From: Dictyoglomus thermophilum H-6-12
Lineage (GTDB): Bacteria > Dictyoglomota > Dictyoglomia > Dictyoglomales > Dictyoglomaceae
Assembly: GCF_000020965.1 (NCBI RefSeq)
Contig: NC_011297.1
Coordinates: 186,001-250,000, forward strand
DNA length: 64,000 nucleotides
Reading direction: 5' to 3'
Of the stretch, positions 43,022-61,215 are shown in pieces. Each line of letters opens with the position of its first letter. Position 1 is the stretch's first letter. The notes beneath the pieces are model-generated. The model did not search any database. It was given only the letters and a program-made list of their open reading frames with translations, and was not told where the DNA came from. The position numbers were made by a program, and so were the translations under genes.

Positions 43022-43185
43022 TTCTACTTTACCTTTTTGCATATGACTTTCAACTTTACCCTACTTAGGAACGCTGATGAAATCTTTATTTTAATAGGGC
43101 AAATTTTTTTATTTTTAAATTTTTTGAAGATAAAACGTTTTACTAAAAAATTGCTTAGATTAAAGAATGTGATATAATTACAAAA
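43022..43185 (+). promoter_or_regulatory. Intergenic control module M2: 40-bp motif and regulator promoter
   Basis: The 40-bp motif sits at 43031-43070, ahead of the minus-strand operon at 42972. TTGCTT (43151-43156) and TATAAT (43173-43178) are 16 bp apart and drive the plus-strand gene at 43208, leaving a leader of about 23 nt without a clear Shine-Dalgarno. The whole block is repeated at 55381-55530 and, partly, at 51901-52020 and 63480-63582. Confidence 0.8.
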
Positions 43186-43207: not shown

Positions 43208-44731
43208 ATGCCCAAGGAAATTTCTTATATCAATAGGATTATATCCGCGTATGGATCTTATGCGAAACCATTTTTAAACTGGATTTTGGAAACAGGCAGA
43301 ATTTCTTCAGCCTGGAAAACTTATTTTTTAGCATTGAAATTATATTGGAAAGGAGAATATTTTTTAGCTTTAAGTAAATTAGAAAAAGCCCTTAATAAGT
43401 GCAATAATAGTAAAACATTATATTATCTTGTTCTTACTCAAAAGCTTGCATTTTTATCAAGGGTAAATAGTAAAGAAGGAGTAGAGCTCTTTCACAAGTT
43501 AAAACAAGAATTCCCTTATATTCCATCCTATGTAAGAAATATTGCAGTCTCATCACTCCTTCATTACTATGCTACTATCTTCCCATCTAATCTCCCCAAG
43601 TTTCGTATTTGGAGCAATAGTTATCATTTAGACTCTTCCTCCCAGGTTTTTATATTCTTAGGTAAGGCAAGAGAAGAGATAAAAAAAGAAAATATTAGAA
43701 AAGCCATATTTTACTACGTTAAAGCTTTTAGAACATCCCTATCTATTCCCCATCCAACAGGAATTATCAATAGTTTAAACAACCTCTCTTGGAATCTTAA
43801 AGAAAGACATCCTAAATTTTCTCTATCATTAGCTAAAAAAGCTGTTTATTACTGTGCTTTATATAGGGAAGATCTATCTTATGATTTTGCTGTTCTGGAT
43901 ACTCTTTTTGAAGTACAGAGGATTAATAATGATCTTTCTATTTGTGAGACTTCTATGATTATTAAGCACTATTATAAATTTTTGTCAGATTCTTCTGGAA
44001 ATTACAATAAACAGCACTACAGAAAAACCTTTGAATCCTCTAAAAGATTTTGTTTTGATTTAGAACCTTCTTTCTATAAAAATAATGGAGAATTGAGAGA
44101 TTTAAATAAAGTTTCAAATATTAAACCTGATTTTAATAATCTCCCCCTTGAAGTATTAATTGAATTGAGAAGAATAAACATATTAAAAAACTTTCAGAGA
44201 ACCATAGAAAAATTAAATAATGTATCAAAGGACGCAAGAGAAAATTTAATTCTCTCAAGTTTTATGAGTCTTTGTGATAGAAAAAGTTTATTTCCTTCTA
44301 CTTATAAAAAGATTAAAAACATATTGGATTTCTCAGAGAATATTAAAAGACTCATTAATTTTGCGAAGAGGGATTTTGAGGTTATAAGATTTTTATCCTA
44401 TATCTCTAATGACCATCCTTTTTTTGAAGCAAGAATGGATTTAGCAAAAAAATTTTTGGAAACTCTACTCCCAGAGAAAAGAGAATTTTTCATAAGTTTT
44501 TACCTCTCTCTAAAGGAAAAAGAAAAAGAGCTTATAGATGCTTTTGTGAGGAATTATGTAAGATATGATAGAGATTGGCATATTAAAATACCTACTCCTG
44601 CAGAAATAGTTTCTTTTGTTAAAGGATTTCAGCTGAAGGAACTGCCTTCTTCTTTAGCTTATTTTTGCTTTGAGAGGAGAGAAAGAAGAAATTTCAATAA
44701 AATAATTAATGAAATGATGGTTAATGCTTAA
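43208..44731 (+). CDS. Regulator-like helical repeat protein, full-length copy of a three-copy family
   Basis: A 507-residue protein without signal peptide or membrane span. Residues 30-120 read like TPR helices ('ALKLYWKGEYFLALSKLEKA', 'TLYYLVLTQKLAFLSRVNSK'), and more helical pairs follow to about 250. The C-terminal part 'IPTPAEIVSFVKGFQLKELP' is not a recognised DNA-binding motif. The first ~120 residues and the upstream 150 bp are almost identical to copies at 55560 and 63613. TPR architecture, divergent placement and linkage to peptide operons recall peptide-sensing RRNPP regulators, but no HTH is visible and the assignment is only a proposal. Confidence 0.7.
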   Translation: MPKEISYINRIISAYGSYAKPFLNWILETGRISSAWKTYFLALKLYWKGEYFLALSKLEKALNKCNNSKTLYYLVLTQKLAFLSRVNSKEGVELFHKLKQEFPYIPSYVRNIAVSSLLHYYATIFPSNLPKFRIWSNSYHLDSSSQVFIFLGKAREEIKKENIRKAIFYYVKAFRTSLSIPHPTGIINSLNNLSWNLKERHPKFSLSLAKKAVYYCALYREDLSYDFAVLDTLFEVQRINNDLSICETSMIIKHYYKFLSDSSGNYNKQHYRKTFESSKRFCFDLEPSFYKNNGELRDLNKVSNIKPDFNNLPLEVLIELRRINILKNFQRTIEKLNNVSKDARENLILSSFMSLCDRKSLFPSTYKKIKNILDFSENIKRLINFAKRDFEVIRFLSYISNDHPFFEARMDLAKKFLETLLPEKREFFISFYLSLKEKEKELIDAFVRNYVRYDRDWHIKIPTPAEIVSFVKGFQLKELPSSLAYFCFERRERRNFNKIINEMMVNA

Positions 44732-44740
44732 CACTACAGT

Positions 44741-45185
44741 TCAAAGAATCCCTTTAATTGCCTCTATAAAATCAGTGAAGTCTTTAATATCCTTTTTGGC
44801 ATACTCATAAATTTCTTAATCTCTCCGATAGATCTTTATCTAAGACTTTCTCTTTTTCAAGGATTTCTATGCATTCTCCTAAACTGGAAACTCCCTTATT
44901 GAATCTTTTAGTGCAGATGTGGACACATATCCCTCCTAAGGATTCTATAGCTTAGAGAAGGAAGTATTTTAAGGCTGCTATATTTCTCTTGTCAGACCAG
45001 AATTTCTCTGTTTTATTTTTTTCAATATCGATCTGCATCAAGGAAGAAGCTCCTTTAAAGATAAGTAGGATATATACTCATTACTAATGGCTTCAAGGGA
45101 TGTTGTTTCTATTAAATCTGTAAGGAATTTTTCAATCAATAATTCTTTATTCTTTCCTTTTCATAAAGGGAGTAAAATTCCTTGT
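44741..45185 (-). pseudogene. Decayed HepT-like HEPN gene with antitoxin tail
   Basis: Joining frames on the minus strand gives 'KELLIEKFLTDLIETTSL' (end of an MntA-like antitoxin), then 'NIAALKYFL', 'AIESLGGICVHIC', 'SLGECIEILEKEKVLDKD' and finally 'YEYAKKDIKDFTDFIEAI'. These are successive parts of a DUF86/HepT protein, but the segment with the RxxxxH motif is missing and several stops interrupt it. A second relic of the same tail lies at 52069-52149, after the other copy of the control module. Confidence 0.65.
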
Positions 45186-45196
45186 TCATAAAAATA

Positions 45197-46912
45197 TTAT
45201 ATCATTGTTACTATATTTACGATTTTTCCATTCTCCAAGTAAACAATTTTATTTATAAAGGTTTCCTTAGGTAAATCCTTAGGAGTAATGATAACACAAG
45301 TTGTATCTTTCATCTTTTCTTTTATAAATTTAAATATCTTTTCTTCTACCCTTGTATCTATTTCAGAGGTTGCCTCGTCAAGTATGAGAATTTCAGGATT
45401 TTTTAATATAGCTCTAAGAAAAGCAATCACCTTCTTTTGTCCTCCCGATATTCTTACTCCTCTTTCTCCTATTATGGTATCAAGCCCATTTGGGAATCCT
45501 TCCATAAAAAAGTGATATAAATCTATCTCTTTTAGGAGATTATTTATCTCATTGTCAGAGATGTTGGGATTTGCATAGGAAATGTTATTTCTAACAGTAT
45601 CATTAAATAAGAAGATGTTTTGGGAAACAATTCCAATTTTTTCTCTTAAAGAGGAAAGCTTTATTTTATCTAAGTCGATACCGTCTATAAAAATTTTTCC
45701 TTCCAAAGGTTTATACATTCTAAGAAGCAGTCGGATTAGAGTAGTTTTTCCACTACCATTAGGACCTACTATTGCGACTTTTTCTCCCACTTTTATATCT
45801 AAGTTTATATTTTCTAAAACTTTATTTTTTCCATCATAGGAAAAGGAAACATTAACAAAAGATATTCCTTCTCTTAACTTATTAATTGTTATTTCGCCTT
45901 CTTCTTCTTTTGCCATCTCCATAATTTCAGTAACTCTTTTTAAAGAGACAAGAGCTGGATAAATAGTAAAATTAAAAGTAGCTAAACTTTGAATAGGACC
46001 ATAAAGTCTCTGCACATAGGATGTGAAAGCAATATAACTTCCTAAAGTAAAGGATCCATTTATTATATCTAAACCTCCTCTCCATAGGATAAGAAGTCCG
46101 CCCAAAGCAATAAGAGTGATATTAAATTCTGAGAATAATGTAAAGATTATACTTTGTAGAATGTTCTTTCTGCTAATTTCTTTAAATCCCTTTTCAATTT
46201 CCATAGCCTCTCTTTCCTCTGTAGCAAAAAGTTTAATTACTTCTGCTCCTGAAATTCTTTCTTCTACTTTCCCCATTAATTTAGCAGAGGATTCTAAAAG
46301 ATCTTTTGTGATATATGTAATTCTTTGAGACAAGGGTTTAAGACCTAGATAATAAAAGGGTAAAATTGAAAGAGCGATTAAGGTTAATTTCCAATTGAGA
46401 TAAAAGAGCATAAAAAGAGCAAAAATAAATTCTCCTAATCTTATTAATTGGCTTACTAATGTAGAAGAGAAGAAGAATCCTAATCCTTCTATTTCTCCAA
46501 TTCTGCTTAAAAGATAGCCTGTTTGAGCTTGATCGTAAAAAGAGAAAGGTAGTTTCAAAATCTTTTTAAATAACTCACTTTTTAAAGTTGCTATAATTTC
46601 TTGGTTTAATTTTGTAAAAAGATATTGGGTAATACCAGAGAATACACTTCTTGCTATGTGAAGAATTGCCATAATAATGACTAAATTAACAAGTAATTTT
46701 GCATTTTTACTTCCTAATAAAACCTTATCGATTACTATCTTTGTTAAATAGGGAACAGGAATTGTAATAAAGGACGAGATTATAAGAAATATACTTGCAA
46801 TTATAAAATTACCAAGATGAATTTTAAAATAAGGTAACAATATTTTAAGTTTTGAGAAGGAAATATCTTCTTTCTTTGGAATAAGGAAATCAAAATCCTC
46901 TTTCATTTTCAT
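45197..46912 (-). CDS. ABC exporter with fused membrane and ATPase domains
   Basis: A 571-residue half-transporter. Six membrane helices (residues about 30-320) precede an ATPase with Walker A 'VAIVGPNGSGKTTLIRLLLR', signature 'ISGGQKKVIAFLRAIL' and Walker B 'ILILDEATSEID'. It resembles MsbA-type and peptide exporters. No N-terminal C39 peptidase domain is present, so it does not itself cut a leader peptide. The switch region has 'TTCVIITPKDLPKE' where a His is expected, which may impair or alter hydrolysis. Last gene of cluster A; a candidate exporter for the Cys-rich peptides. Confidence 0.92.
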   Translation of the reverse strand: MKMKEDFDFLIPKKEDISFSKLKILLPYFKIHLGNFIIASIFLIISSFITIPVPYLTKIVIDKVLLGSKNAKLLVNLVIIMAILHIARSVFSGITQYLFTKLNQEIIATLKSELFKKILKLPFSFYDQAQTGYLLSRIGEIEGLGFFFSSTLVSQLIRLGEFIFALFMLFYLNWKLTLIALSILPFYYLGLKPLSQRITYITKDLLESSAKLMGKVEERISGAEVIKLFATEEREAMEIEKGFKEISRKNILQSIIFTLFSEFNITLIALGGLLILWRGGLDIINGSFTLGSYIAFTSYVQRLYGPIQSLATFNFTIYPALVSLKRVTEIMEMAKEEEGEITINKLREGISFVNVSFSYDGKNKVLENINLDIKVGEKVAIVGPNGSGKTTLIRLLLRMYKPLEGKIFIDGIDLDKIKLSSLREKIGIVSQNIFLFNDTVRNNISYANPNISDNEINNLLKEIDLYHFFMEGFPNGLDTIIGERGVRISGGQKKVIAFLRAILKNPEILILDEATSEIDTRVEEKIFKFIKEKMKDTTCVIITPKDLPKETFINKIVYLENGKIVNIVTMI

Positions 46913-47661
46913 GAACTCCCTTTTTGTAGAATTTTTTCTATACTAGTATTTTTAACAAGATAATAGGAAATAATAAACAATACTAAACCTGCAAGTATGA
47001 AAATTAAGTTTGGTTTTAACAAGAAGTGTATTCTTTCTAATTTATCTGGCTCCATAAAATAAAAGAAAGCGATGAAAAGTATTGAATAAGCATAAGTTAT
47101 CAAAATTCTCGTGGGAATCAGTTTATCTACAAATAACAAGGACAAACATCCAATAAAGCTTAATATTCCAAAGTTGATTATGGGAGCTACAACAATAATA
47201 TGAAAGACATTCTGTAAAGTAATTCTAACAGATACACCCAACAATATTAAATAAAGGAGAAGCCCAAAGAGAGAAGACAGACTCATCACATATATGGCTA
47301 GTGATACATAAATGACCTTTCCCAGCCAAAAATCTACAAGAGTAAGAGGAGTAGAAAGAAGAGGTATTATGTTCTTAGTATAATATTCTGTGATAAATAA
47401 CAAAGTTATATGAAATGTTCCAACAAATATCATTGTACCTATAGGAATGTAATTTATCAATTTACTAACGAAGTTGCTGAAAAATATCTTTGTATTGGGC
47501 GAGTTTGCCATCTCTCTTACTATGTGAGGAATTCTAAATAGATTATCCTCCCCCTTTACTATAGTTGTGTTGAAGACGAACAAAAAGAAAATAGAGTAGA
47601 ATAGAGAGATGTAAAGAAATTTTCTGAATTGCTTCATCTCTTTATATAAAATTCCTAACAT
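46909..47661 (-). CDS. ABC-2 type permease of cluster A
   Basis: A 250-residue membrane protein with six hydrophobic segments. 'PLLSTPLTLVDFWLGKVIYV' is the coupling segment typical of ABC-2 permeases. It pairs with the separate ATPase at 47662, one base away, and overlaps the next exporter gene by four bases. In bacteriocin loci such pairs often give self-immunity by pumping the product out. Confidence 0.85.
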   Translation of the reverse strand: MLGILYKEMKQFRKFLYISLFYSIFFLFVFNTTIVKGEDNLFRIPHIVREMANSPNTKIFFSNFVSKLINYIPIGTMIFVGTFHITLLFITEYYTKNIIPLLSTPLTLVDFWLGKVIYVSLAIYVMSLSSLFGLLLYLILLGVSVRITLQNVFHIIVVAPIINFGILSFIGCLSLLFVDKLIPTRILITYAYSILFIAFFYFMEPDKLERIHFLLKPNLIFILAGLVLFIISYYLVKNTSIEKILQKGSS

Positions 47662-48591
47662 TTATTTTTCCTCCTTTACTATAGATAGGTATATATCTTC
47701 AAGAGAGTTTTTAATCTCATTGATTTTCCATACTTTTATGTTATTTTGTGTAAACCATAATAATAGATCTGGTAATTTGTCTTTATTTTCCAAAGAAACA
47801 ATTATCTTACCTTCCTCTTCTTTTACATTTTGAACAAAAGGCAGGTTTCTTAATGGTACTTCTACTTCTTGCAAGGGTTTATCTATGGAGATTTCTACTT
47901 CTTTTCTATCAAAGGCTCTTTGCAATTCAGAAAGAGTCCCACAGGCTACAATTTCTCCTTTATTTATTATTCCAATTCTAGTACATATTTGGGATATTTC
48001 GTAGAGATTATGGGACGTTATAAAAATAGTAACATTTTTATTATTAGCAAGATTGACTAAGAAATCTCTTATAAATTTTTGTCCTTCCACATCTAAACCT
48101 GTAGTTGGCTCATCTAAAAGAAGAAGTTCTGGCTCATGAAGAAGTGATCTTGCTAAGCATAATCTCTGCCTCATACCTGTTGAATAATTTTTAACCTTTT
48201 CTTTTTCTCTACCAGAAAGTCCTACAAGTTCTATTAATTCTTTTATTCTATTTTCTCTTATCTTTTTGGGCACTTTGTATAAAATAGAGTAAAATTCTAA
48301 GTTTTCATATCCAGTGAGATTTTCATATAACCCTCTTTCTTCAAGCATGAAACCTATTCTTCCTTTAATCTTATCCAATTCACTAATGTCGTAGCCAAAT
48401 ACTTTTACTTCTCCGTCATTGGGTTTTAACAGTCCAAGAAGTATTCTTATAGTGGTAGTTTTTCCAGCACCATTAGGACCTATATACCCAAAAATCTCTC
48501 CTTTTTTAACCTGAAAACTCGCTTTGTTCAAAGCCAAAGTTTTTTCGTATTTCTTTACCACATTATTAAAGGAAATGACAAAATCTCCCAA
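47662..48591 (-). CDS. ABC transporter ATPase of cluster A
   Basis: A 309-residue ATPase with Walker A '[20 protein letters not shown]', signature 'YSTGMRQRLCLARSLL', Walker B 'LLLLDEPTTGLD' and switch His in 'ITSHN'. The C-terminal 90 residues form the extension seen in NatA/CcmA drug and bacteriocin-immunity ATPases. It partners the permease at 46909. It follows the interrupted maturase by four bases, so it depends on reinitiation or readthrough upstream. Confidence 0.93.
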   Translation of the reverse strand: MGDFVISFNNVVKKYEKTLALNKASFQVKKGEIFGYIGPNGAGKTTTIRILLGLLKPNDGEVKVFGYDISELDKIKGRIGFMLEERGLYENLTGYENLEFYSILYKVPKKIRENRIKELIELVGLSGREKEKVKNYSTGMRQRLCLARSLLHEPELLLLDEPTTGLDVEGQKFIRDFLVNLANNKNVTIFITSHNLYEISQICTRIGIINKGEIVACGTLSELQRAFDRKEVEISIDKPLQEVEVPLRNLPFVQNVKEEEGKIIVSLENKDKLPDLLLWFTQNNIKVWKINEIKNSLEDIYLSIVKEEK

Positions 48592-48595
48592 AGCT

Positions 48596-49849
48596 TCACC
48601 CCCATATTCCTTCCAATGGATTATACTTACAAAATTTCACTTCACCTAGGCTACTCCCTTTTAGTAATTCGAAGGCTCTACAATCTAGACAAGCATATCT
48701 AAATTCGCAATACTTACATGGATAAAGCTTCTCTTTGGATAGTTCGTAAAATCTGTCAATTGTTCCCTTTATGAAAAGATCTGGTATTTTACTTTCTTTA
48801 ACGCTTCCCAATACTAAATTTCTAAGCATTGGGCAAAGGAGATATTTACCTTCAAGGGTAATTGTTATTTTCCCTTTAAGACAAGGATTGTAAATTTTTC
48901 GTAATTCAAAGTCAGAGACAAATACTGGTAGAATGTCATTTTTTTCAATGTAGTGATCAAACATATAGCTTTCAGAAATATTTTGTTTATTAATATTTAG
49001 GTCTGTAGTCATGTTTTCTATTATTATATTTTTTTGTTTATAAGATTCTAAATCGCAAAATCGAAAATTGATATAAAATTGAATATCTTCTTCTTTTAGT
49101 TTTCTTAAATTATTTAAAAGAAAAGCAAAACTCTTTTGAGAGATAGTATTATAGAGGGATTATGGCAAAAAAATGCTAATGATAGGTTTTAAATTGTAAT
49201 GCTTTATTAAATTTCTACTTTTTTTCGTAGCTATATTTATTCCATGAGTTAGAATAAAAATATTTTCAAAATTGAATTTGTCTAAATTTCTACAAAAATT
49301 GACTAAAGATGTGATTTCTAAAAATGGGTCACCTCCTAAAATTACTAATGTCTTACATCTCAAATTATTTACTTCCTGTAGTATTTCTAACCATAATTCT
49401 TCACTAATTCTTTTTTTGTAGCTTATTTGAGTACATCCCAAACAACCGAATTTTATAGGATAATTTTTACAAAAATAACAAGAAAAATCACATGTACTAC
49501 TCACTTCTATAAAGGCAATATCTAAATTAGGAGCAGGTTTGTTAAATAGATGTTTCTGCATAAAAAGAGGAAAGCCTAAACTTAATTTATCTATATAAGC
49601 TTTATTTTCATATTTTCTTATTATTCCGTTTTGCTTTAGAACTCTCACAAATTCCATAATTTCGGTCTTAGATAGTCCATTTATTATATTTAGTATCTCC
49701 TCAAAGGGCATTTTGTCTAAAAGTTCTATAATTCTTGTTCTTTCTTCACAAAGATGAATAATTTCCCCCTGAAGGGTATTATATAATGCACTTTTTTTTC
49801 TTCCTTTAACAAAATAGATTTCTGGAGATAGTCTATAATATGTGCTCAT
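48596..49849 (-). pseudogene. Radical SAM/SPASM peptide maturase 2 of cluster A, one in-frame TAA
   Basis: Two frames, 49849-49160 and 49012-48596, are in the same phase. The 49 codons between them are open except for a single TAA at 49162-49160 ('SIFLP stop SLYNTISQKS'). Read through it, a 418-residue protein results: an N-terminal PqqD-like peptide-binding domain (residues 1-85), the radical SAM site C120-xxx-C124-xx-C127, and a C-terminal SPASM cysteine set ('CKYCEFRYACLDC'). A TAA from CAA is the simplest lesion. It may be a recent pseudogene, a sequencing error, or programmed readthrough. Confidence 0.8.
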
Positions 49850-51245
49850 AATTCCTCCTCTTGTTTTTGGTATTTAAATGAAACAGTTTTTCTTCGAATG
49901 AAGGATCACTTTCTAATAGAGAGTATAATTCAGAGAAATCTGACAAAGTTTGTTTTATTAATAATTCGCATATATTCTCTGGATCTTTTGAAAATCTATT
50001 ATTAGTCATAAAAGTAGCAAAACACATAGTGCATAAACGTGATATTGGGCATTTTTTGCATTCATAGGTTATTTCTTCTTTGTATTTATTAAGTACCTGA
50101 ATTATTTTCTTATAATTTAGGCCTTCTTCTATATTACCAATTGGAAAAGAATAGTTTACTTTCTCACAAATGTGAAAATTCCCGTCGGTGTCGATAAAAA
50201 TTTTTACACCTGGGACACAACTTCCATGTAAGAAATTAAAAACACCTTTTGATTTTGTTATTTTTTCCCGAATTAAGAGAGTTCTATAATTTGATCCAAA
50301 AAAAATATCTAAAAACGCACTTGTTTTTTTCTTCTTTTTAATTTGTTCAAAATAAACATCCTTCAATTTTTGAATTTGACATTGATGGTTTAAAAAGTCC
50401 TCTTTGGTAAAAATTTGGTAATATTTAGAAAAGTAAGGAGCTGCGGCATTTACTCTTACTAAAGGAGGTAAATTTTTATTCGTACTAAAGAATTCTTCTA
50501 GTTTAAATAAGTCTGTTTTCCAGTCATAACAACAAATTAATGATATATTTTCATAAAAATATCGTGGATAATGAAATCGTATGTATTCAAGATTTTGTAG
50601 TATTTTATCAAATGTTTTTTGGCCTTTTATTGTTGTTCTATTTCTATCATGATTTTCTTTATATCCATCTAGGCTTACAGCAATATAAAAATCATTATCG
50701 ATTAAAAAATCTACGATATCCTTAGTCAACAAATACCCATTAGTAGTTATATTATATAAAACATTAATATTAGGGAACTTTTTTCTGATATAAGTAACTA
50801 TGCTTTTTATTAAATCAAAATTTAGTAAGGGCTCTCCCCCATAAAAAGTAACACAAGGTTTCCTATATGGATTATACTTTAATACTTGAAAAATATTATT
50901 GAAATAATAATCTACAGCCTTTTTGGCAATATCAAAATTCATATTTTTTCTATTAAAAATTGGAGCATAATCGTACATGCCTGAATAATAATAACAGTAT
51001 TTACATCTAAAATTACAATTTTCAGTAACACTTAAAATAAGTTGAGTAAAACCCTCATATAAAAGAAAATGTTGTATGTCTACTTCTCTTAATACAGGTT
51101 TTTCTTTCATATTATTATGTTTAAGCAAATTTATTATTTCTTTTAGTTTATCAATATCTTTTTTGGGAAATGTCAATCCTGTATCATCATTATAAATATA
51201 AGTAGTATTTTCTGTAGAAAACTCTATTATTTTAATATTATCCAA
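49833..51245 (-). CDS. Radical SAM/SPASM peptide maturase 1 of cluster A
   Basis: A 470-residue protein with the [4Fe-4S]-SAM motif C77-xxx-C81-xx-C84 ('CNFRCKYCYYY'), 'FYGGEPLLNFDLI' and a SPASM domain whose cysteines include 'CEK' and 'CKKCPISRLCTMCFA' near residues 370-420. SPASM maturases bind auxiliary clusters and introduce thioether or other cross-links into precursor peptides. The N-terminal 60 residues probably bind the leader. The end overlaps maturase 2 by 17 bases. Its likely substrates are the two Cys-rich peptides directly upstream. Confidence 0.9.
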   Translation of the reverse strand: MDNIKIIEFSTENTTYIYNDDTGLTFPKKDIDKLKEIINLLKHNNMKEKPVLREVDIQHFLLYEGFTQLILSVTENCNFRCKYCYYYSGMYDYAPIFNRKNMNFDIAKKAVDYYFNNIFQVLKYNPYRKPCVTFYGGEPLLNFDLIKSIVTYIRKKFPNINVLYNITTNGYLLTKDIVDFLIDNDFYIAVSLDGYKENHDRNRTTIKGQKTFDKILQNLEYIRFHYPRYFYENISLICCYDWKTDLFKLEEFFSTNKNLPPLVRVNAAAPYFSKYYQIFTKEDFLNHQCQIQKLKDVYFEQIKKKKKTSAFLDIFFGSNYRTLLIREKITKSKGVFNFLHGSCVPGVKIFIDTDGNFHICEKVNYSFPIGNIEEGLNYKKIIQVLNKYKEEITYECKKCPISRLCTMCFATFMTNNRFSKDPENICELLIKQTLSDFSELYSLLESDPSFEEKLFHLNTKNKRRNYEHIL

Positions 51246-51269
51246 ATTCTTACCCCTCCTCTTTAAGTG

Positions 51270-51297
51270 AAGGGGGCGTCCTTAAAGACGCCCCCTC
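51270..51297 (-). terminator. Hairpin between precursor peptide and maturase, cluster A
   Basis: Stem GGGGGCGTC / GACGCCCCC without a long T-run, just after the stop of the second precursor. It probably acts as a partial terminator or RNA-stabilising hairpin, giving more precursor than enzyme. Cluster B has an equivalent at 54948. Confidence 0.75.
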
Positions 51298-51302
51298 ATA
51301 AA

Positions 51303-51488
51303 TTAACTTTTAACTGCCCACGCGGTAGCAGCGTTAGCAGCGAGTCTGCTACCTATAAGATCAGTTACAGGAGAAGTAGCATCCATCATACAAATAGCGG
51401 CACAACCCCCGGCGCATCCCCCTGCGCAACCCAAAAAGCACACCCATCCTTTGTCTGTACCTTCTTTTCTGGACGCTAAAATTTCCAT
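51303..51488 (-). CDS. Cys-rich precursor peptide A2 (five Cys, spacing four)
   Basis: A 61-residue peptide. Cysteines at positions 17, 21, 25, 29 and 33 form CxxxCxxxCxxxCxxxC, embedded in Gly and Ala ('CFLGCAGGCAGGCAAIC'). The leader is short and charged; the part after the Cys block is Ala-rich ('DLIGSRLAANAATAWAVKS'). GTG 51494 is in frame, but ATG 51488 fits GGAGG better. Adjacent radical SAM/SPASM genes make it a probable RiPP precursor, perhaps with sactionine- or ranthionine-type cross-links. Peptide A1 has cysteines at the same five positions. Confidence 0.75.
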   Translation of the reverse strand: MEILASRKEGTDKGWVCFLGCAGGCAGGCAAICMMDATSPVTDLIGSRLAANAATAWAVKS

Positions 51489-51516
51489 ATCCACACCTCC
51501 TATATTTTAAAATTTG

Positions 51517-51705
51517 CTAAAGTACTTTTGCTTTACCATAAGCAGCGTAGCTTCCACGTGTTCCTGCTACAACATCCATTAGTGGTATACCAGGAGTATC
51601 CACATAACATCCTGCAGCACATATAGCTCCGCATCCTAAACCACAAACGAAAGGACACCATTTACTCGCGAGTGATACCTCTTCTTTTTTTACTATGTAT
51701 TCCAT
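51517..51705 (-). CDS. Cys-rich precursor peptide A1 (five Cys, spacing four)
   Basis: A 62-residue peptide with cysteines at 17, 21, 25, 29 and 33 ('CPFVCGLGCGAICAAGC'), the same spacing and positions as peptide A2 although most other residues differ. Trp16 precedes the block, and 'YVDTPGIPLMDVVAGTRGSY' follows, parallel to 'MMDATSPVTDLIGSRL' in A2. GGAGGTG is well placed before the ATG. The two peptides could act as a pair, as in two-component bacteriocins, or be alternative products. First precursor gene of cluster A. Confidence 0.75.
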   Translation of the reverse strand: MEYIVKKEEVSLASKWCPFVCGLGCGAICAAGCYVDTPGIPLMDVVAGTRGSYAAYGKAKVL

Positions 51706-51732
51706 ATTTCACACCTCCTAAAAATAATTTTA

Positions 51733-51860
51733 CTAGACTAAAATAAATGAAAATGTTATTAGATTTGATACCAAATTTAAATTCTTCCGTAGCATCTTAG
51801 AGTCTTTTTCTTGTTATCCTCTTCTAAAGGATCCTCATATGTAATTCTCATAGTGAACAT
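51733..51860 (-). pseudogene. Small membrane peptide relic at head of cluster A
   Basis: ATG 51860 reads 'MFTMRITYEDPLEEDNKKK'; with one extra A in the A-run the frame would go on 'DSKMLRKNLNLVSNL' to 51733. The parts match the small gene at 55340-55144 and the relic at 61107-60881. The N-terminal hydrophobic segment is missing. It sits between the 40-bp motif and precursor A1. Confidence 0.5.
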
Positions 51861-51894
51861 GAGCCTCACATATTCCCCTTAAGCTTTCTATTTT

Positions 51895-52022
51895 CACTTT
51901 ACCTTTTTGCATATGACTTTCAACTTTACCCTACTTAGGAACGCTGATGAAATCTTTATTTTAATAGGGCAAATTTTTTTTATTTTTAAATTTTTTGAAG
52001 ATAAAACGTTTTACTAAAAAAA
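51895..52022. repeat. Truncated copy of control module, M3
   Basis: The 40-bp motif at 51901-51940 and the following AT-rich block up to the CGTTTTACTAAAAA stretch match 43031-43150. The match ends before the regulator promoter, and no regulator gene follows. The motif can still serve the minus-strand cluster A. Confidence 0.8.
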
Positions 52023-52068
52023 ATAACTTGAAAATAAGGAAATATCTGTTAATATTGAGGGGTAAATT

Positions 52069-52149
52069 AATCGCCTCTATAAACTCAATAAAATCTTTTA
52101 TATCATGTTTGGCATATTCATAAACTTTTTGGTCCTCAAGAATAAACAA
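52069..52149 (-). pseudogene. C-terminal relic of HepT-like gene
   Basis: 'LEDQKVYEYAKHDIKDFIEF' followed by 'IEAI' matches the C-terminal helix of DUF86/HepT proteins and the relic at 44741 ('YEYAKKDIKDFTDFIEAI'). Nothing else of the gene remains. It marks where the regulator gene was deleted from module M3. Confidence 0.6.
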
Positions 52150-52179
52150 AAAAGGGAACTTAAATAAAACAGAACAACT

Positions 52180-52872
52180 TTATGGAATTGTCAAAACTAC
52201 GGTCTCATTATTAATTCTTTTTCCAAACACAAAAGAGACTAAAATTAAAATTATCCCTAATAAAGCTAAACCCAGAAAGATAAAACTATCATATTTCGCA
52301 TTCAATGGAATTTTCTGCATTATATAATTCCATCCAAATATGATTGAAAATCCAATTATCCACAGCAAGTTATTAATTAAGTTTACCTTTCTTATCCTCA
52401 AAACAAGAGTACACATCATACTCGCAAGTCCTATGTTAAAAATAGAAATAATACCTAATATCTTTATTAAATCAAAAAAATTAATAGATTTTTTAAGAAG
52501 CAAAAAAAGAATAAAATTAGCTATAAATACACAGAAAATTAATATAAACTCAGTTATTATCCATAGAGATATTATAGAACCAAAAAGATAAGACCTAACC
52601 CCAACCCCATTAGATAGTAAAAACTCTATCCTACCTGTAATTTTTTCATAAACTATAAGATCTGAAAGAATCATACTCGTTGTAAAAGCTAATATAGAAG
52701 ATCCCATAAGCAAAAGTATTCTTGAAAATATGAAATAAGATACATTAAAGGGCATATCCTTCAAAAGTGCAAAAAGAGTATAACTCACAACTCCTGTAAG
52801 GAAAATAACTTGAAAATAAAAAGTACTATTTTTAAACACATTTTGTAAATTATATTTGATAATTTTACCCAT
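52180..52872 (-). CDS. ABC-2 type permease of cluster B
   Basis: A 230-residue membrane protein with six hydrophobic segments. 'EKITGRIEFLLSNGVGVRSY' is the amphipathic coupling segment of ABC-2 permeases. It lies two bases after the ATPase gene and is the last gene of cluster B. It probably exports, or gives immunity to, the peptide made by this cluster. Confidence 0.82.
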   Translation of the reverse strand: MGKIIKYNLQNVFKNSTFYFQVIFLTGVVSYTLFALLKDMPFNVSYFIFSRILLLMGSSILAFTTSMILSDLIVYEKITGRIEFLLSNGVGVRSYLFGSIISLWIITEFILIFCVFIANFILFLLLKKSINFFDLIKILGIISIFNIGLASMMCTLVLRIRKVNLINNLLWIIGFSIIFGWNYIMQKIPLNAKYDSFIFLGLALLGIILILVSFVFGKRINNETVVLTIP

Positions 52873-52874
52873 TT

Positions 52875-53582
52875 TTAACCTCCCCCTATTACATCAAGAA
52901 ATAATTCCTCAAGATCTCTATATTTTCCAAGAATTTCACTCTTCATATCATCTACTAATATCTTTCCCTCTTTTATAAGAATCACTCTATGAGCAAGTTT
53001 TTCTAGCTCTCCCAAATCATGAGAGGTCAATATTACGCTTTTTCCTTTCTGATTTAAATCAAGAATTAATTCTCTCATATTTTTTCGAGAAATAGGATCA
53101 AGCCCACTCATAGGTTCATCCAAAACTAAGAGATCTGGATTTTTCAAAAGAGCTAAAAGAAAACTTAGTTTTCTTTTTGTCCCTTTAGAATAAGTATAGA
53201 CCTTTTGAGACAGAAAATCTAAAATTCCTAACTTCTCTGCATAAACTTCAATATCATTTTTTTCTACTCCTCTTCCAAGAAGTTCAGCATATATCTTTAT
53301 ATTCTCCCATCCTGAATACTTTTCCCATAAAAGATCTTTCTCAAGCATTACAGAGATGATTAAATTATTAACCTTTTCTATATTCCCAGAAGTAACATTG
53401 AATATCCCTGTTAAACAGCGAAGAATAGTAGTCTTTCCTGCTCCATTTGGACCCAAAAGTGCTGTAATCTCTCCTCTTACTATATCAAAGGAAATATTTT
53501 TTAAAATTTTCTTTCCATTTATTTCTTTTGAAAGATTTCTAATAGAAATGAGTTTTTCAGAAATTCTTTTCTCCATACACAT
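52875..53582 (-). CDS. ABC transporter ATPase of cluster B
   Basis: A 235-residue ATPase with Walker A '[20 protein letters not shown]', signature 'YSKGTKRKLSFLLALL', Walker B 'LLVLDEPMSGLD' and switch His in 'LTSHDLGE'. It partners the permease at 52180. ATG 53582 or 53576 is possible; both lie inside the end of the maturase gene, an overlap of about 60 bases that couples their translation. Confidence 0.92.
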   Translation of the reverse strand: MCMEKRISEKLISIRNLSKEINGKKILKNISFDIVRGEITALLGPNGAGKTTILRCLTGIFNVTSGNIEKVNNLIISVMLEKDLLWEKYSGWENIKIYAELLGRGVEKNDIEVYAEKLGILDFLSQKVYTYSKGTKRKLSFLLALLKNPDLLVLDEPMSGLDPISRKNMRELILDLNQKGKSVILTSHDLGELEKLAHRVILIKEGKILVDDMKSEILGKYRDLEELFLDVIGGG

Positions 53583-54916
53583 TTGTCTTCTCCTTCCCCA
53601 TATGCTTTCATTAAACCTCTAACTAGACAATTATTGCAAAACCACAAATTTTCGCATTCTTTACATATTCTTTTATTTGGTGCAGGAATTTGAGAAATAA
53701 TTTCGAAATACATCGAATAAGTTTGTAAAAAATTCTTTAAAGAGTTCCCAGAAAACTTTAAATTGCCTATACTCATATCTGACATTTGGCAAATTTTAAC
53801 ATCAAGATTAGGAGAGAGAGTTATGCCAGATCTTCCAACACCACAATTTATCGAATCTGACATAATTTCTTCTTCAATTACTGATATAAAATTCTTACCA
53901 TATTTTTCGATTAAATTTTCTATATTTTTTTCAAACATAGCAAAGGCTTTATCGTCAAGAGATATTATTAAATCATTATTAGACTTAGCTCGCCCAATAG
54001 GAGCAATAGGACCAAAAGCGACTGCGGTAGCTCCAAGTTTATAAGCAATTTCAGCAACATCTGCCATTTGCTCAACATTAAGTGAAGTTACATTACATAC
54101 GACTCTCACAACTATTCCTAAATCTGATAACTTTTTTATGCTGTCAATCGCTGAATAGTAAGCTTTTTCATTACCTGTAAACCAACGTACATACTCTGGA
54201 GAACTTCCGTGAAGATCTATTTGTACAACTACTCTTTCTCTATTATAGTATAAAAGTTGACATATCTCCTCAGAGAGATTACTCCCATTAGTAAGTAAGC
54301 CAATTAATTCGAAATTATAAGTAAACAATTTCTTGAGAAATTCTTCTATATTTGAATAAACAGTTGGTTCTCCTCCTGTCAATTCTATTTCTCGTATTCC
54401 TAATTTATATGCTTCTTCAAGTATAGAAAGAATAACATCTGTTTTCATTTCAGATAACATATATATAGAAGAGTTATTGTAACAATGTTTACATTGATAA
54501 TTACATCTGTAAGTTAATTCTAAGACTAAGCCAAATGGAACTAAATAATCCCAACTTCCTGTTTTTGTAAAACAAGAATTTTTTATTTCATATTTATTTT
54601 TGCATTCAATCACAGAAATACCGTATCTATTATAAAGACGTTCAAAAAATATTGATATATTTCTAAAAACATTTTCCTCTGTGTCATTATATTTTCTACA
54701 GAAATAATTTACTATCTCAGAAAGACTTAAAGGTTCATACATCTTTTCAATAATTTCACCAGCAACTTTATTTAATTTGATTGCAGCCTGTTGTTTAAGA
54801 CGACCTCTCTTAGGAAGTTTTTTAGAATCAAAACATAAAAAAGCATACTGAGGTTGTAAATGCAACCTTAGATTATCAACGTCTAGTTTTAGATAAACAT
54901 TACTATCCAGGTTCAT
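53519..54916 (-). CDS. Radical SAM/SPASM peptide maturase of cluster B (PqqD-PqqE-like)
   Basis: A 465-residue protein. Residues about 45-105 look like a PqqD-type peptide-binding domain ('AIKLNKVAGEIIEKMYEPLS'). The radical SAM site is C138-xxx-C142-xx-C145 ('CNYQCKHCYNN'), then 'ELTGGEPTVYSNIEEF'. The SPASM domain has cysteines in 'CGVGRSG', 'CQMSD' and 'CKECENLWFCNNCLVRG'. Intact and full length. It probably modifies the Cys-rich peptide encoded just upstream, behind a hairpin. Similarity to PqqE suggests a carbon-centred cross-link, but the chemistry is unknown. Confidence 0.9.
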   Translation of the reverse strand: MNLDSNVYLKLDVDNLRLHLQPQYAFLCFDSKKLPKRGRLKQQAAIKLNKVAGEIIEKMYEPLSLSEIVNYFCRKYNDTEENVFRNISIFFERLYNRYGISVIECKNKYEIKNSCFTKTGSWDYLVPFGLVLELTYRCNYQCKHCYNNSSIYMLSEMKTDVILSILEEAYKLGIREIELTGGEPTVYSNIEEFLKKLFTYNFELIGLLTNGSNLSEEICQLLYYNRERVVVQIDLHGSSPEYVRWFTGNEKAYYSAIDSIKKLSDLGIVVRVVCNVTSLNVEQMADVAEIAYKLGATAVAFGPIAPIGRAKSNNDLIISLDDKAFAMFEKNIENLIEKYGKNFISVIEEEIMSDSINCGVGRSGITLSPNLDVKICQMSDMSIGNLKFSGNSLKNFLQTYSMYFEIISQIPAPNKRICKECENLWFCNNCLVRGLMKAYGEGEDKCVWRKEFLKNSFLLEIFQKK

Positions 54917-54945
54917 GCCTTTTAATCTTAACCTCCTTTTCTTAT

Positions 54946-54976
54946 TTTAGGTGCCGCTTTTTCAGCGGCACCTAAA
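54946..54976 (-). terminator. Hairpin between precursor peptide and maturase, cluster B
   Basis: Stem TAGGTGCCGC / GCGGCACCTA with a seven-base loop and no long T-run, nine bases after the precursor stop. Same position and probable function as the hairpin at 51270 in cluster A. Confidence 0.75.
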
Positions 54977-54984
54977 GCTATAAC

Positions 54985-55122
54985 CTATCTTAACCCTACA
55001 AATCCTACAAAAGTGGCAATCCATGCAGCTTGTACTTTGCCAGGACACCACCTACAAAATCCACATCCAGTACACCCAGCACACCAATTTTTTTCTACCC
55101 CAATAATTTGAGGTTCAGGCAT
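54985..55122 (-). CDS. Cys-rich precursor peptide B (five Cys, spacing three)
   Basis: A 45-residue peptide with cysteines at 14, 17, 20, 23 and 26, that is CxxCxxCxxCxxC ('WCAGCTGCGFCRWCPG'). The tail 'QAAWIATFVGFVGLR' is hydrophobic. GGAGGTGAAGGAA precedes the ATG. It is placed like peptides A1 and A2 in cluster A, between the small membrane peptide and the maturase, but with a Cys period of three instead of four. It is a probable RiPP precursor. A ferredoxin-like metal-binding peptide is the alternative. Confidence 0.75.
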   Translation of the reverse strand: MPEPQIIGVEKNWCAGCTGCGFCRWCPGKVQAAWIATFVGFVGLR

Positions 55123-55143
55123 TTCCTTCACCTCCTTTCTTCC

Positions 55144-55340
55144 TTATAAATTAAAAATCTCTAAAAATCCAATCAAGGGTCCAGAGATTATTAAAACCAA
55201 GGGAATCTTCATAGTATCTTGGATTCTTTTTTCTTGTTATCATCTTCTAAAGGGTCTGCATATATAACTTTAATAGAAAGTATTAACATGAAAATTATTA
55301 AAAGTATTGAAAGAAATATATTTTTATCCTTCTTTTTCAT
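55144..55340 (-). CDS. Small signal-peptide-like protein (43 aa) and coupled 22-aa frame, head of cluster B
   Basis: ATG 55340 has GGGAGG nine bases upstream. It encodes 43 residues (stop 55209): a basic start, a hydrophobic stretch of about 20 residues, 'IYADPLEDDNKKKESKIL', then TGA. An ATG overlapping that stop (55212) opens a second 22-residue hydrophobic frame 'MKIPLVLIISGPLIGFLEIF'. Comparison with 61107-60881 suggests the two were once one two-span protein of about 95 residues. As it stands the first frame looks like a secreted peptide of the pheromone type. The function is unknown. Confidence 0.5.
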
Positions 55341-55374
55341 TTTACATATTCCTCCCACTTAAACTTTTAATTTC

Positions 55375-55557
55375 CACTTTACCTTTTTGCATATGACTTT
55401 CAACTTTACCCTACTTGGGAATGTTGATGAAATCTTAATTTTAATGGGGCAAAATTTTTGTATTTTTAAGTTTTTTTGAAGATAAAGCGTTTTGGTAGTA
55501 AATTGCTTAGATTAAAGGATATGATATAATTAACAAAAAGTTTTTCCCAATTTTGAG
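55375..55557 (+). promoter_or_regulatory. Control module M4: 40-bp motif and regulator promoter
   Basis: 40-bp motif at 55381-55420, TTGCTT (55503-55508) and TATAAT (55525-55530) 16 bp apart, then the same 23-nt leader before the ATG at 55560. Nearly identical to module M2 and to the copy at 63480-63612. Confidence 0.8.
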
Positions 55558-55559
55558 AT

Positions 55560-55970
55560 ATGCCCAAGGAAATTTCTTATATCAATAAGATCATATCCAC
55601 ATATGGATCTTATGCGAAACCGTTTTTAAACTGGATTTTAGAAACAGGCAAAATTTCTTCAACTTGGAAAGCTTATTTTTGGGCATTGAAATTATATTGG
55701 AAAGGGGAATACCTTTTAGCTTTAAGTAAATTAGAAAAAGCCCTTAATAAGTGTAATAATAGTAAAACATTATATTATCTTGTTCTTACGCAAAAACTTG
55801 CATTCTTATTAAGAGTAAATAGTAAAGAAGGGGTAGAGCTCTTTCACAAATTAAAACGAGAATTCCCTTATATTCCATCTTACGTAAGGAATATTACATC
55901 TTCAACTCTTATTAATTACTACAATTCGTTTCTTTCTTCTAATTCTTCAAAGTTTCGTATTTGGACATAA
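55560..55970 (+). pseudogene. Regulator-like protein, truncated copy
   Basis: A 136-codon frame matching the first 140 residues of the 43208 protein and almost identical to the copy at 63613. It ends 'KFRIWT' and then a stop, exactly where similarity to 43208 ends ('KFRIWSNS'). The following DNA carries fragments of unrelated genes, so the 3' two thirds were lost by recombination. The short product could still fold as a pair or two of TPR helices. Confidence 0.7.
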
Positions 55971-56062
55971 AATGCAAAATCTTGATTTTTGATCAATTTT
56001 ACTAACTGAGAAAGTATGCTGACTACACCACTCTAACTCTAAAAAACCTTCACATTAATAAA

Positions 56063-56335
56063 TCAATAAAATTTTTCAAGGATATATACGCTTTTAAAGG
56101 TCTTCAAAGAATAAATACCTAAAATAACTATAAGAATCATAAGATATATAAATGACCAAAATATACTAATTATGGAATTAAAACCTAAAGTAGATCTTAC
56201 CAAATTTAAACAATGAGTTATAGGATTTATAAGTAATACCGAAGTATATATAGGATGTAAATTATCTGTGGAGTAATATACGGGTGCAAAGAGTAGAAAG
56301 AACCACGAAAGCAAAGGAATTATACCTTTAAAAGA
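56063..56335 (-). pseudogene. C-terminal fragment of ABC-2 permease
   Basis: The minus strand reads 'GIIPLLSWFFLLFAPVYYS' and continues to a stop at 56063. 'PVYYSTDNLHPIYTSVLLIN' is the region before the last helix in ABC-2 permeases. There is no start, and the fragment is joined head-on to a sugar-isomerase fragment at about 56336. Confidence 0.6.
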
Positions 56336-56522
56336 ATATCCATTTTCTGCAAGAGCTATTGGAGAGGGTAAGATAAGATGGAAAGAGATTTTTGAGCTTT
56401 GTGAAACTATAGGTGGAACAGAATGGTATATAATAGAGTATGAAAATCTTAGATTTCCGGCTTTAGAGATGGTAAAATTGTGTTTGGAAAATCTTAGAAA
56501 ATTAAAGCGAGAGTCACTATAA
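56336..56522 (+). pseudogene. C-terminal fragment of sugar phosphate isomerase/epimerase
   Basis: The plus strand reads 'GEGKIRWKEIFELCETIGGT' and 'EWYIIEYENLRFPALEMV' to a stop at 56522, the usual last strand and helices of xylose-isomerase-like TIM barrels. No start is present. It is a broken gene end just upstream of the nucleotidyltransferase-HEPN pair. Confidence 0.65.
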
Positions 56523-59882: not shown

Positions 59883-60874
59883 TCAACCAATAAGCTTCAA
59901 AGCATCATCAGCACTTTCTCCACAAAAAATGTTATAGATAAGATTATGAAACCCAATAATAGAAGCTCCTTTACTGTTTTGATGTCTCCCAACTAAATAA
60001 ACTCTTCCTATAATCTTTCCGTTCTCTATTATATGATATTCTTCCCATCTTTTTCGTTAGAATTAGAAAGTGAAAATTCTGCTCCTGGAATGATAAATAA
60101 AGGTGGATATTTATCAGGTGGAACCTCAATGGTATTTCCTAAAGATATCGCTTTCCCCGAATTAAATAATCCTTCAGTAATAATTACATATTCCTTCCAT
60201 TCCTTTTCGGAGAGAAAATTATATATCTCTATGAAATTTTCCTCTGCCTAACTCACAATGCATTTTTAGTTTTACTCCTCGGAATTTAAAATTTTTTTCC
60301 CTCAAAATTTTACACGCAGTTAAGAAATTTTTTAACCATGTCTCTCATTAGACTTATACCTAACGTATTATGGGACTCTATTTCTTCACGCGTGAGAACA
60401 GTTTTTTTAATGTGATTTACATATCTATATAAGCTTCCCGCATGATGTTCGTCACAAGATAGATGAATTTCTACATTTTCCTTTACTATTCCCAAGTTAA
60501 CTAAATTTTCTATGGTCTCTTTTACTCCTTCCTTTCCTTTTTTTAAAGAGATGACACCTTCTACCACTTGTAAAAATATATATTGGAATAGACCTTTCGA
60601 AATTTTTATAAGTCAAAATTTTAATAACTTCTGATAATCCTTTATATTCTAATGGTTCACCCCCAGTAAGTCTTATTTCTCTTAGTTTATTAAAATCTAC
60701 TTTCCTCCAAAAATTAATGTGCCATTCTGTAGGTAAGTAAAAACCTAAAAATTTATTATAAGACCAACAATGAGCACAACTCCCGCTACAAGAAGGATTT
60801 AGGAAATAAACAACTTCCCATCCATTAGGATGTATTTTTTTATTATCAAAGTCCAAATATAATGGAAGATTCAT
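59883..60874 (-). pseudogene. Radical SAM protein of cluster C, frameshifted
   Basis: ATG 60874 opens a frame with C29-xxx-C33-xx-C36 ('CSGSCAHCWSY') and 'IRLTGGEPLEYKGL', which breaks near 60560. It continues in other frames as 'VVEGVISLKKGKEGVKETI', 'MHCELGRG', 'YNFLSEKEWKEYVIITEGLF' and 'GRVYLVGRHQNSKGASIIGF' to 59883. About 330 residues in total with at least three frame changes. It lacks a clear SPASM Cys set, so it may belong to a different radical SAM type from clusters A and B. Confidence 0.75.
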
Positions 60875-60880
60875 TTTGTT

Positions 60881-61107
60881 TTAAGTATTATGATAGTATT
60901 CATACTTTTTCCATATAAGCCCTTCTATTACTTGTTTTGCAAAAATAGGTAGTATCCTTTTCCCTTCCTTTCTTCCTTTAAAATTAAAAATCTCCAAAAA
61001 TCCAATCAAGGCTCCGGAAATTATTAAAACCAAGTGAAACCTTTGTAGTATCTTGGATTCTTTTTCTTGTTATCACCTTCTAAAGGATCCTCATATGCAA
61101 TTCTCAT
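60881..61107 (-). pseudogene. Small membrane protein relic at head of cluster C
   Basis: ATG 61107 reads 'MRIAYEDPLEGDNKKKNPRY'. In the neighbouring frame the DNA goes on 'ILQRFHLVLIISGALIGFLE' and 'IFNFKGRKEGKRILPIFAKQ' to 60881, where it almost touches the radical SAM start. This is the longest version of the family seen at 55144 and 51733. The A-run after 'DNK' is one base shorter than in the 55340 copy. Confidence 0.5.
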
Positions 61108-61154: not shown

Positions 61155-61215
61155 CACTTTACCTTTTTGCATATGACTTTCAAATTTACCCTACTTGGGA
61201 ATGTTGTTAAGATCT
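61155..61215 (-). promoter_or_regulatory. Dispersed 40-bp motif, copy M5
   Basis: Motif core at 61161-61200, upstream of minus-strand cluster C. The DNA beyond it (61200-61350) resembles 34895-35070 rather than the regulator-bearing modules. Confidence 0.8.

What the first reader, a model, noticed from the sequence alone, without database searches (positions are those of the whole stretch)
51303..51705. Two precursors with five Cys at identical positions, strict spacing of four
A1 and A2 differ in most residues, yet both have Cys at 17, 21, 25, 29 and 33 (CxxxC repeated). Strict i+4 spacing would line all Cys along one helix face or set up regular cross-links. Conservation of position without sequence conservation implies the maturase or fold depends on the spacing.
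Basis: seen in the sequence. Interest (0 to 1): 0.85.

Follow-up and report, generated by a model that had tools for sequence, protein, structure and literature searches.

The report
Five-cysteine ladder sactipeptide precursor pair
Two short peptide genes in a heat-loving bacterium encode relatives of the known antibiotic peptides thuricin CD and thuricin Z (huazacin), with five instead of three or four evenly spaced cysteines; a neighbouring enzyme very probably stitches these into a ladder of sulfur cross-links, so this is a somewhat longer member of a known kind.

Summary
From their ATG starts, A1 and A2 (61 and 62 aa, 28% identical) both carry Cys at 17, 21, 25, 29 and 33, and each start follows a strong ribosome-binding site. 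They are diverged homologues, not unrelated sequences with a shared spacing. Both match the huazacin/thuricin Z family just below its cut-off, and sit in a thuricin CD/Z-like cluster: two precursors, a TrnC-like radical SAM/SPASM enzyme, a TrnD-like partner and ABC transporters. Homologous clusters have precursors with the same regular Cys ladder; a Clostridia one has exactly five Cys spaced by four. Thuricin Z (Cys4/8/12/16 joined to residues 38/34/30/26) explains the rule: Cys and acceptor positions are both spaced by four, giving nested hairpin thioethers. I predict five S-to-alpha-carbon bonds; in A1 C33-D43, C29-S47, C25-A51, C21-T55 and C17-V59. The spacing is not fixed by the maturase clade, since one relative uses seven Cys spaced by three, but regularity is. 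Unexpectedly, the TrnD-like partner is broken by one in-frame TAA. A second cluster nearby has five Cys spaced by three. Verdict: a new member of a known kind.

The parts
51303..51488 (-). Precursor A1, 61 aa, Cys17/21/25/29/33; leader about residues 1-14, core about 15-61 (boundary inferred)
   Evidence: ATG after AGGAGGTG; NF037972 HuaA_fam_RiPP E 2.5e-6, 27.4 bits, cut-off 35; core aligns without gaps to the five-Cys Clostridia precursor, 19 of 45 identical
51517..51705 (-). Precursor A2, 62 aa, Cys17/21/25/29/33, one extra residue in the hairpin loop
   Evidence: ATG after AGGAGGTG; NF037972 E 2.3e-7, 30.7 bits
51261..51305 (-). Strong RNA hairpin between A1 and the maturase gene (GGGGGCGUC...GACGCCCCC), probable partial terminator or processing site
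   Evidence: MFE -23.9 kcal/mol, z -3.7, 0 of 200 shuffles as stable; role inferred
49833..51245 (-). TrnC-like radical SAM/SPASM maturase (rSAM1), 470 aa; CNFRCKYC at 76-83; SPASM Cys 342, 359, 395, 398, 404, 407, 425
   Evidence: Radical_SAM E 3.5e-18; CcpM E 1.3e-75; CteB structure 5wgg is the best PDB sequence match; SPASM Cys spacing as given for TrnC in PMC12093266
48596..49849 (-). TrnD-like partner (rSAM2), 417 codons, split by one in-frame TAA at codon 230 (49160-49162) into 229 aa (N-terminal leader-binding-like part plus CDFSCYFC) and a C-terminal SPASM part
   Evidence: reads through in frame and aligns over its length with four homologues; grasp-with-spasm SPASM E 3.2e-18 for the C-terminal piece
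47662..48591 (-). ABC transporter ATPase (DrrA-like), probable immunity or export
   Evidence: ABC_tran E 2.3e-32, DrrA1-3_C E 1.2e-9
46909..47661 (-). ABC-2-type membrane protein (permease), 250 aa
   Evidence: position and hydrophobic sequence; no Pfam match; same gene order in R. albus and Coriobacteriales
45197..46912 (-). ABC exporter with fused membrane and ATPase domains, no C39 peptidase domain found
   Evidence: ABC_membrane E 8.3e-39, ABC_tran E 1.5e-33
51789..52021 (-). Upstream regulatory block shared with two neighbouring clusters and one more operon
   Evidence: the 39-base core occurs only four times in the genome, all in this window
54985..55122 (-). Neighbouring precursor A3 (second cluster), 45 aa from ATG, five Cys spaced by three (14, 17, 20, 23, 26)
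53519..54916 (-). AlbA-like radical SAM/SPASM maturase of the second cluster, with PqqD-type N-terminus
   Evidence: AlbA E 2.1e-39 below its cut-off; PqqD E 2.1e-5 and Radical_SAM E 5.4e-22

Best explanation
A1 and A2 are the two precursors of a thuricin CD / thuricin Z (huazacin)-type sactipeptide system. The short Cys-free leader is bound by the maturase pair. The TrnC-like rSAM1 abstracts alpha-hydrogens from residues in the C-terminal half and joins them to the Cys sulfurs, one by one, as nested S-to-alpha-carbon thioethers across a hairpin whose turn resembles C-x-[VMI]-D-x-P-x-P. Donors and acceptors run antiparallel, so both must have the same period, here four; that is why the Cys spacing is strict while the residues between drift. 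Predicted rungs in A1: C33-D43, C29-S47, C25-A51, C21-T55, C17-V59 (five bonds, -10 Da). In A2 the loop is one residue longer and the rungs shift by one (C33-D44 and so on), with lower certainty. ABC proteins export the product and protect the producer; the likely role is a narrow-spectrum, membrane-acting bacteriocin. Shown: genes, homology, cluster order, active-site motifs, Cys ladder and loop motif in homologues. Inferred: the chemistry, the pairings and the activity. In this genome the TrnD-like partner is interrupted by a stop, so the system may work poorly or be dying.
For: NF037972 (huazacin family) hits for both precursors, E 2.5e-6 and 2.3e-7. Same gene order in R. albus pRUMAL03, annotated there as two huazacin-family peptides, radical SAM protein, partner and ABC ATPase, and in Coriobacteriales OH1046. 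The Clostridia precursor L092 has five Cys spaced by four and aligns without gaps to A1's core. Asp at +10 from the last Cys of the ladder (the thuricin Z C16-D26 rung, PMC8172795) is present in A1, L092, R. albus and the G955 precursor, and at +11 in A2. L092's loop CMIDGPIPISDFVGAT matches subtilosin A, solved structure 1PXQ, CLVDGPIPDFEIAGAT, E 0.021. rSAM1 has CX3CX2C and seven SPASM Cys with the spacing of TrnC up to the last one; rSAM2 has C-x2-C-x5-C plus a Cys 20 residues on, as in TrnD. The precursors' rSAM1 enzymes group together in a tree apart from those with irregular-Cys precursors.
Against: Both precursors score below the curated huazacin cut-off. rSAM1's best family model is CcpM and its best PDB relative is CteB, a ranthipeptide enzyme; CcpM is far below its equivalog cut-off, so beta- or gamma-carbon links cannot be excluded by sequence. 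rSAM2 is broken, and the cluster is absent from the other six Dictyoglomota genomes, so it may be non-functional. The A2 register gives Gly48 as an acceptor, which is unusual. No product has been seen. AlphaFold was not informative (mean pLDDT 55.8).
Confidence: 0.8

Rival explanations
1. Ranthipeptide-like product: the same enzymes join Cys to beta or gamma carbons in local, non-nested rings, as in the Cys-rich CcpM/CteB relatives.
For: Best family and structure matches of rSAM1 are CcpM and CteB 5wgg.
Against: Relatives found here with KKLGK...EAY leaders have irregular Cys spacing and fall outside the clade in the tree; A1/A2 match the huazacin family, and their Clostridia homologue carries the subtilosin loop.
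Confidence: 0.1
2. Decayed cluster: with the TrnD-like partner interrupted by TAA, A1/A2 are no longer matured in this strain, and the even spacing is a relic. (This concerns present activity and can be true together with the best explanation of what the peptides are.)
For: One in-frame TAA at codon 230; neighbouring third copy of a radical SAM gene at 60310-60874 is clearly broken; in thuricin CD TrnC alone gives under 5% of the paired activity (PMC12093266).
Against: Precursors, rSAM1 and transporters are intact; in thuricin Z each enzyme works alone (PMC8172795); the partner in Coriobacteriales L017 lacks the CX3CX2C motif altogether, so the partner's radical chemistry seems dispensable. 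A sequencing error at the stop is also possible.
Confidence: 0.35
3. Metal-binding or disulfide Cys-rich peptide, Cys aligned on a helix, not enzymatically cross-linked.
For: Five Cys; AlphaFold draws helices, at low confidence.
Against: Adjacent radical SAM/SPASM maturase and exporter with conserved gene order; i+4 steps drift 40 degrees per Cys on an alpha-helix; family matches.
Confidence: 0.04

Closest known systems
Thuricin Z / huazacin (ThzA, ThzC, ThzD; NCBIfam NF037972)
   Same: Two precursor genes, two radical SAM enzymes, ABC ATPase and permease; CX3C ladder; Asp acceptor 10 residues after the last Cys; family HMM hit (PMC8172795)
   Different: Four Cys and two copies of one precursor there; five Cys and two diverged precursors here; score below cut-off; ThzD-like partner interrupted here
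Thuricin CD (TrnA/TrnB, TrnC, TrnD)
   Same: Two different precursors with Cys at identical positions spaced by four (+5, +9, +13; PMC3132745), TrnC-like and TrnD-like enzymes with matching auxiliary-cluster Cys spacing
   Different: Three Cys there, five here; no double-Gly leader end evident here; partner broken here
Subtilosin A (AlbA)
   Same: Hairpin loop C-x-V-D-G-P-I-P shared with the Clostridia and R. albus homologues
   Different: Irregular Cys spacing, head-to-tail cyclic, three thioethers (general knowledge), AlbA-type enzyme
CcpM/CteB-type Cys-rich peptide maturases (ranthipeptides, SCIFF)
   Same: Maturase superfamily and SPASM architecture
   Different: Different leaders and irregular Cys spacing in the relatives examined
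Thurincin H
   Same: Regular Cys ladder with nested thioethers (acceptors spaced by three, PMC8172795); resembles neighbour A3 and the G977 precursor
   Different: Spacing three, not four

Membership tests
Huazacin/thuricin Z precursor family (NF037972) | Score at or above the curated cut-off of 35 bits | tested here: not met
   27.4 and 30.7 bits, E 2.5e-6 and 2.3e-7
Huazacin/thuricin Z precursor family (NF037972) | CX3C ladder in the N-terminal half of the core, followed by a hairpin loop and an acceptor half | tested here: met
   Cys17-33 spaced by four; loop and Asp at +10/+11
Sactipeptide (S-to-alpha-carbon thioethers) | Thioether bond from Cys sulfur to an alpha carbon | not testable with these tools
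   Needs MS/MS or NMR of the modified peptide
Sactipeptide (S-to-alpha-carbon thioethers) | Adjacent radical SAM enzyme with CX3CX2C and SPASM auxiliary-cluster Cys | tested here: met
   rSAM1 CNFRCKYC and seven SPASM Cys
Thuricin CD-type two-component system | Two different precursors with Cys at identical positions | tested here: met
   A1 and A2, 28% identical
Thuricin CD-type two-component system | Intact TrnC-like and TrnD-like enzymes | tested here: not met
   TrnC-like intact; TrnD-like split by one TAA
Thuricin CD-type two-component system | Synergistic antibacterial activity of the two peptides | not testable with these tools
   Needs an assay
Ranthipeptide (CcpM/CteB substrates) | Leader and irregular Cys pattern of that group | tested here: not met
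   Relatives with KKLGK...EAY leaders have irregular spacing; A1/A2 do not resemble them

The most novel reading that the evidence does not exclude
A five-rung nested thioether hairpin, longer than the three- and four-rung hairpin sactipeptides described in the papers read here, made in a thermophile by a TrnC-like enzyme without an intact TrnD-like partner, as half of a two-component bacteriocin co-regulated with a second cluster whose precursor has a ladder of period three.
Probability: 0.3. Interest if true: 0.5.

Novelty: new member of a known kind. Interest (0 to 1): 0.36.

Why it matters
It extends the thuricin CD/Z type of sactipeptide to a thermophilic phylum and to five evenly spaced Cys. 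It gives a natural series (three, four, five Cys of period four; seven of period three; one with an empty rung) for asking how one enzyme counts rungs and sets the register. The interrupted partner gene and the motif-less Coriobacteriales partner bear on the recent finding that only TrnC's radical chemistry is strictly essential. Nested thioethers from a thermophile could be useful heat-stable scaffolds. None of this needs a new class of chemistry.

Tried and rejected
Convergence of unrelated peptides: rejected, both match the same family. Chance spacing: rejected. One helix face: rejected on geometry. Searching plasmids with A2: no match, probably too short and simple. The genome-collection scan with the maturase used generic motifs and returned mostly unrelated radical SAM proteins, with one useful locus, L017. 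The huazacin HMM over 395 genomes of one class found nothing. AlphaFold on A1 with A2 gave a low-confidence helical hairpin and is not used as evidence. No Rfam family in 44500-56500. Literature searches for Dictyoglomus with sactipeptide, or with radical SAM and precursor peptide, found none; a search for five-thioether sactipeptides found only a nisin-variant paper. The library holds open-licence papers only.

Full report
Observation. A1 (51488..51303, minus strand) and A2 (51705..51517) are real small genes: each ATG follows AGGAGGTG. From those starts both have Cys at exactly 17, 21, 25, 29 and 33 and nowhere else. They share 28% identity with one gap. Shuffled A1 sequences show five Cys all spaced by four in 4 of 300,000 cases. 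The corresponding DNA pattern occurs four times in the 1,959,987-base genome: A1, A2 and two other places, one of which has an in-frame stop; the reversed control pattern is absent.

What they are. Both precursors hit NCBIfam NF037972, the huazacin-family RiPP peptides, at E 2.5e-6 and 2.3e-7 but below the curated cut-off. Shared Cys positions are therefore most simply inherited from a common ancestor. Downstream on the same strand lie rSAM1 (49833-51245), rSAM2 (49849-48596), an ABC ATPase, a permease and an ABC exporter. The R. albus plasmid pRUMAL03 has the same order: two annotated huazacin-family peptides, radical SAM protein, partner, ABC ATPase, membrane protein. Coriobacteriales OH1046 also has it. 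The cluster is absent from the six other genomes of the phylum held.

The maturases. rSAM1 is a radical SAM/SPASM enzyme with CNFRCKYC at 76-83 and SPASM Cys at 342, 359, 395, 398, 404, 407 and 425, all invariant across three homologues. The spacing 342-359, 395-398-404-407 equals that given for TrnC Cys 383-400, 437-440-446-449 (PMC12093266). rSAM2 has CDFSCYFC and Cys 378, 381, 387 and 407, the spacing of TrnD Cys 383, 386, 392 and 412. So the pair corresponds to TrnC and TrnD. rSAM2 is interrupted by one in-frame TAA at codon 230; reading through it gives one continuous protein that aligns with four homologues.

Homologous precursors. Beside rSAM1 relatives I found: L092 (same class as a Lachnospiraceae genome), five Cys spaced by four plus one C-terminal Cys; R. 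albus, Cys 19, 23, 31, 35, that is five slots with one empty; Coriobacteriales, gaps 5, 4, 4, 4 and a later Cys; L127 (same class as a Paenibacillaceae genome), four Cys spaced by four; and L126 (same class as L127), seven Cys spaced by three. The L126 cluster also has an S41-family protease, and a C-terminal protease gene is reported beside thuricin CD-like genes (PMC3132745). A1's core aligns without gaps to L092 over 45 residues with 19 identities. In a tree these rSAM1 enzymes fall together (support 0.93 at the node; the distant AlbA-like outgroup attaches next to it with weak support, so it is moderate evidence), apart from enzymes whose neighbouring precursors have KKLGK...EAY leaders and irregular Cys.

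Mechanism. In thuricin Z, Cys 4, 8, 12 and 16 are bonded to residues 38, 34, 30 and 26 (PMC8172795): both series step by four, and the innermost pair is Cys to Asp ten residues on. A1, L092, R. albus and L127 all have Asp ten residues after the last Cys of the ladder, and A2 has it eleven residues after, with one extra loop residue. L092 matches subtilosin A (1PXQ) across the hairpin loop, E 0.021. This supports a nested hairpin with five rungs in A1: C33-D43, C29-S47, C25-A51, C21-T55, C17-V59. The bond type, the pairings and the antibacterial role are inferred, not shown. The AlphaFold model (mean pLDDT 55.8) is not used.

Interpretation check. Regular cross-links: supported by analogy. One helix face: not supported. 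Maturase dependence on spacing: the clade accepts periods of three and four and one empty rung, so the enzyme family does not demand exactly four; a common period in donors and acceptors is the better statement.

The broken partner. TrnC and TrnD act together, only TrnC's radical chemistry is strictly essential, and TrnC alone gives under 5% activity (PMC12093266). In thuricin Z each enzyme is reported to work alone (PMC8172795). The Coriobacteriales partner lacks CX3CX2C, and a motif-less TrnD homologue is reported in B. thuringiensis serovar huazhongensis (PMC3132745). So the TAA may weaken, abolish or barely affect maturation here; only experiment can tell.

Neighbours. A second cluster (A3 with five Cys spaced by three, AlbA-like maturase, ABC genes; 52180-55122) and a decayed third (60310-61033) lie next door. 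The same 39-base upstream element, containing a promoter-like TTGAAA-16-TAAAGT, occurs four times in the genome, all in this window, ahead of these three clusters and one glycosyltransferase operon, suggesting co-regulation.

Verdict. The finding is sound and explained: a five-Cys, thuricin CD/Z-type sactipeptide precursor pair. It is a new member of a known kind, with the longer ladder, the thermophile host and the broken partner as its points of interest.

Noticed in passing
49160-49162 (in 48596-49849, minus strand): One in-frame TAA splits the TrnD-like partner gene; the rest reads through without another stop or frameshift.
   Followed up: partly
43028-43066, 51898-51936, 55378-55416, 61158-61196, minus strand: A 39-base promoter-like element with 0-1 changes occurs only these four times in the genome, ahead of two RiPP clusters, one decayed cluster and a glycosyltransferase/ABC operon.
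   Followed up: partly
52180-55122: Second RiPP cluster: 45-aa precursor with five Cys spaced by three, AlbA-like PqqD/radical SAM/SPASM enzyme, ABC ATPase and permease; an AlbA-like paralogue lies elsewhere in the genome.
   Followed up: partly
60310-61033: Frameshifted radical SAM gene remnant with an upstream region resembling that of the second cluster, a decayed third RiPP cluster.
   Followed up: partly
43208-44731, 55560-55970, 63475 onward (plus strand): Three copies (90-96% identical DNA at their starts) of a gene of unknown family, no Pfam match; at least the 55560 copy is truncated; possible regulator or repeat-associated gene.
   Followed up: no
55209-55358, minus strand: Small ORF with a membrane/signal-like helix ending in YADPLEDDNKKKESKIL; related fragments lie ahead of A2 and the decayed cluster. 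Possibly a signal peptide gene.
   Followed up: no
L126:7381-7578 minus strand: Precursor with seven Cys spaced by three beside an rSAM1 relative, a longer Cys ladder than the one in question.
   Followed up: no
L017:5412-5564: Coriobacteriales precursor of 50 aa that appears to have almost no leader (SD just before the ATG), with a partner enzyme lacking CX3CX2C.
   Followed up: no
61460-63182: Protein made of tandem repeats of about 50 residues (GGKSDDGAYSIQQTSDGGYIVAGGT...).
   Followed up: no
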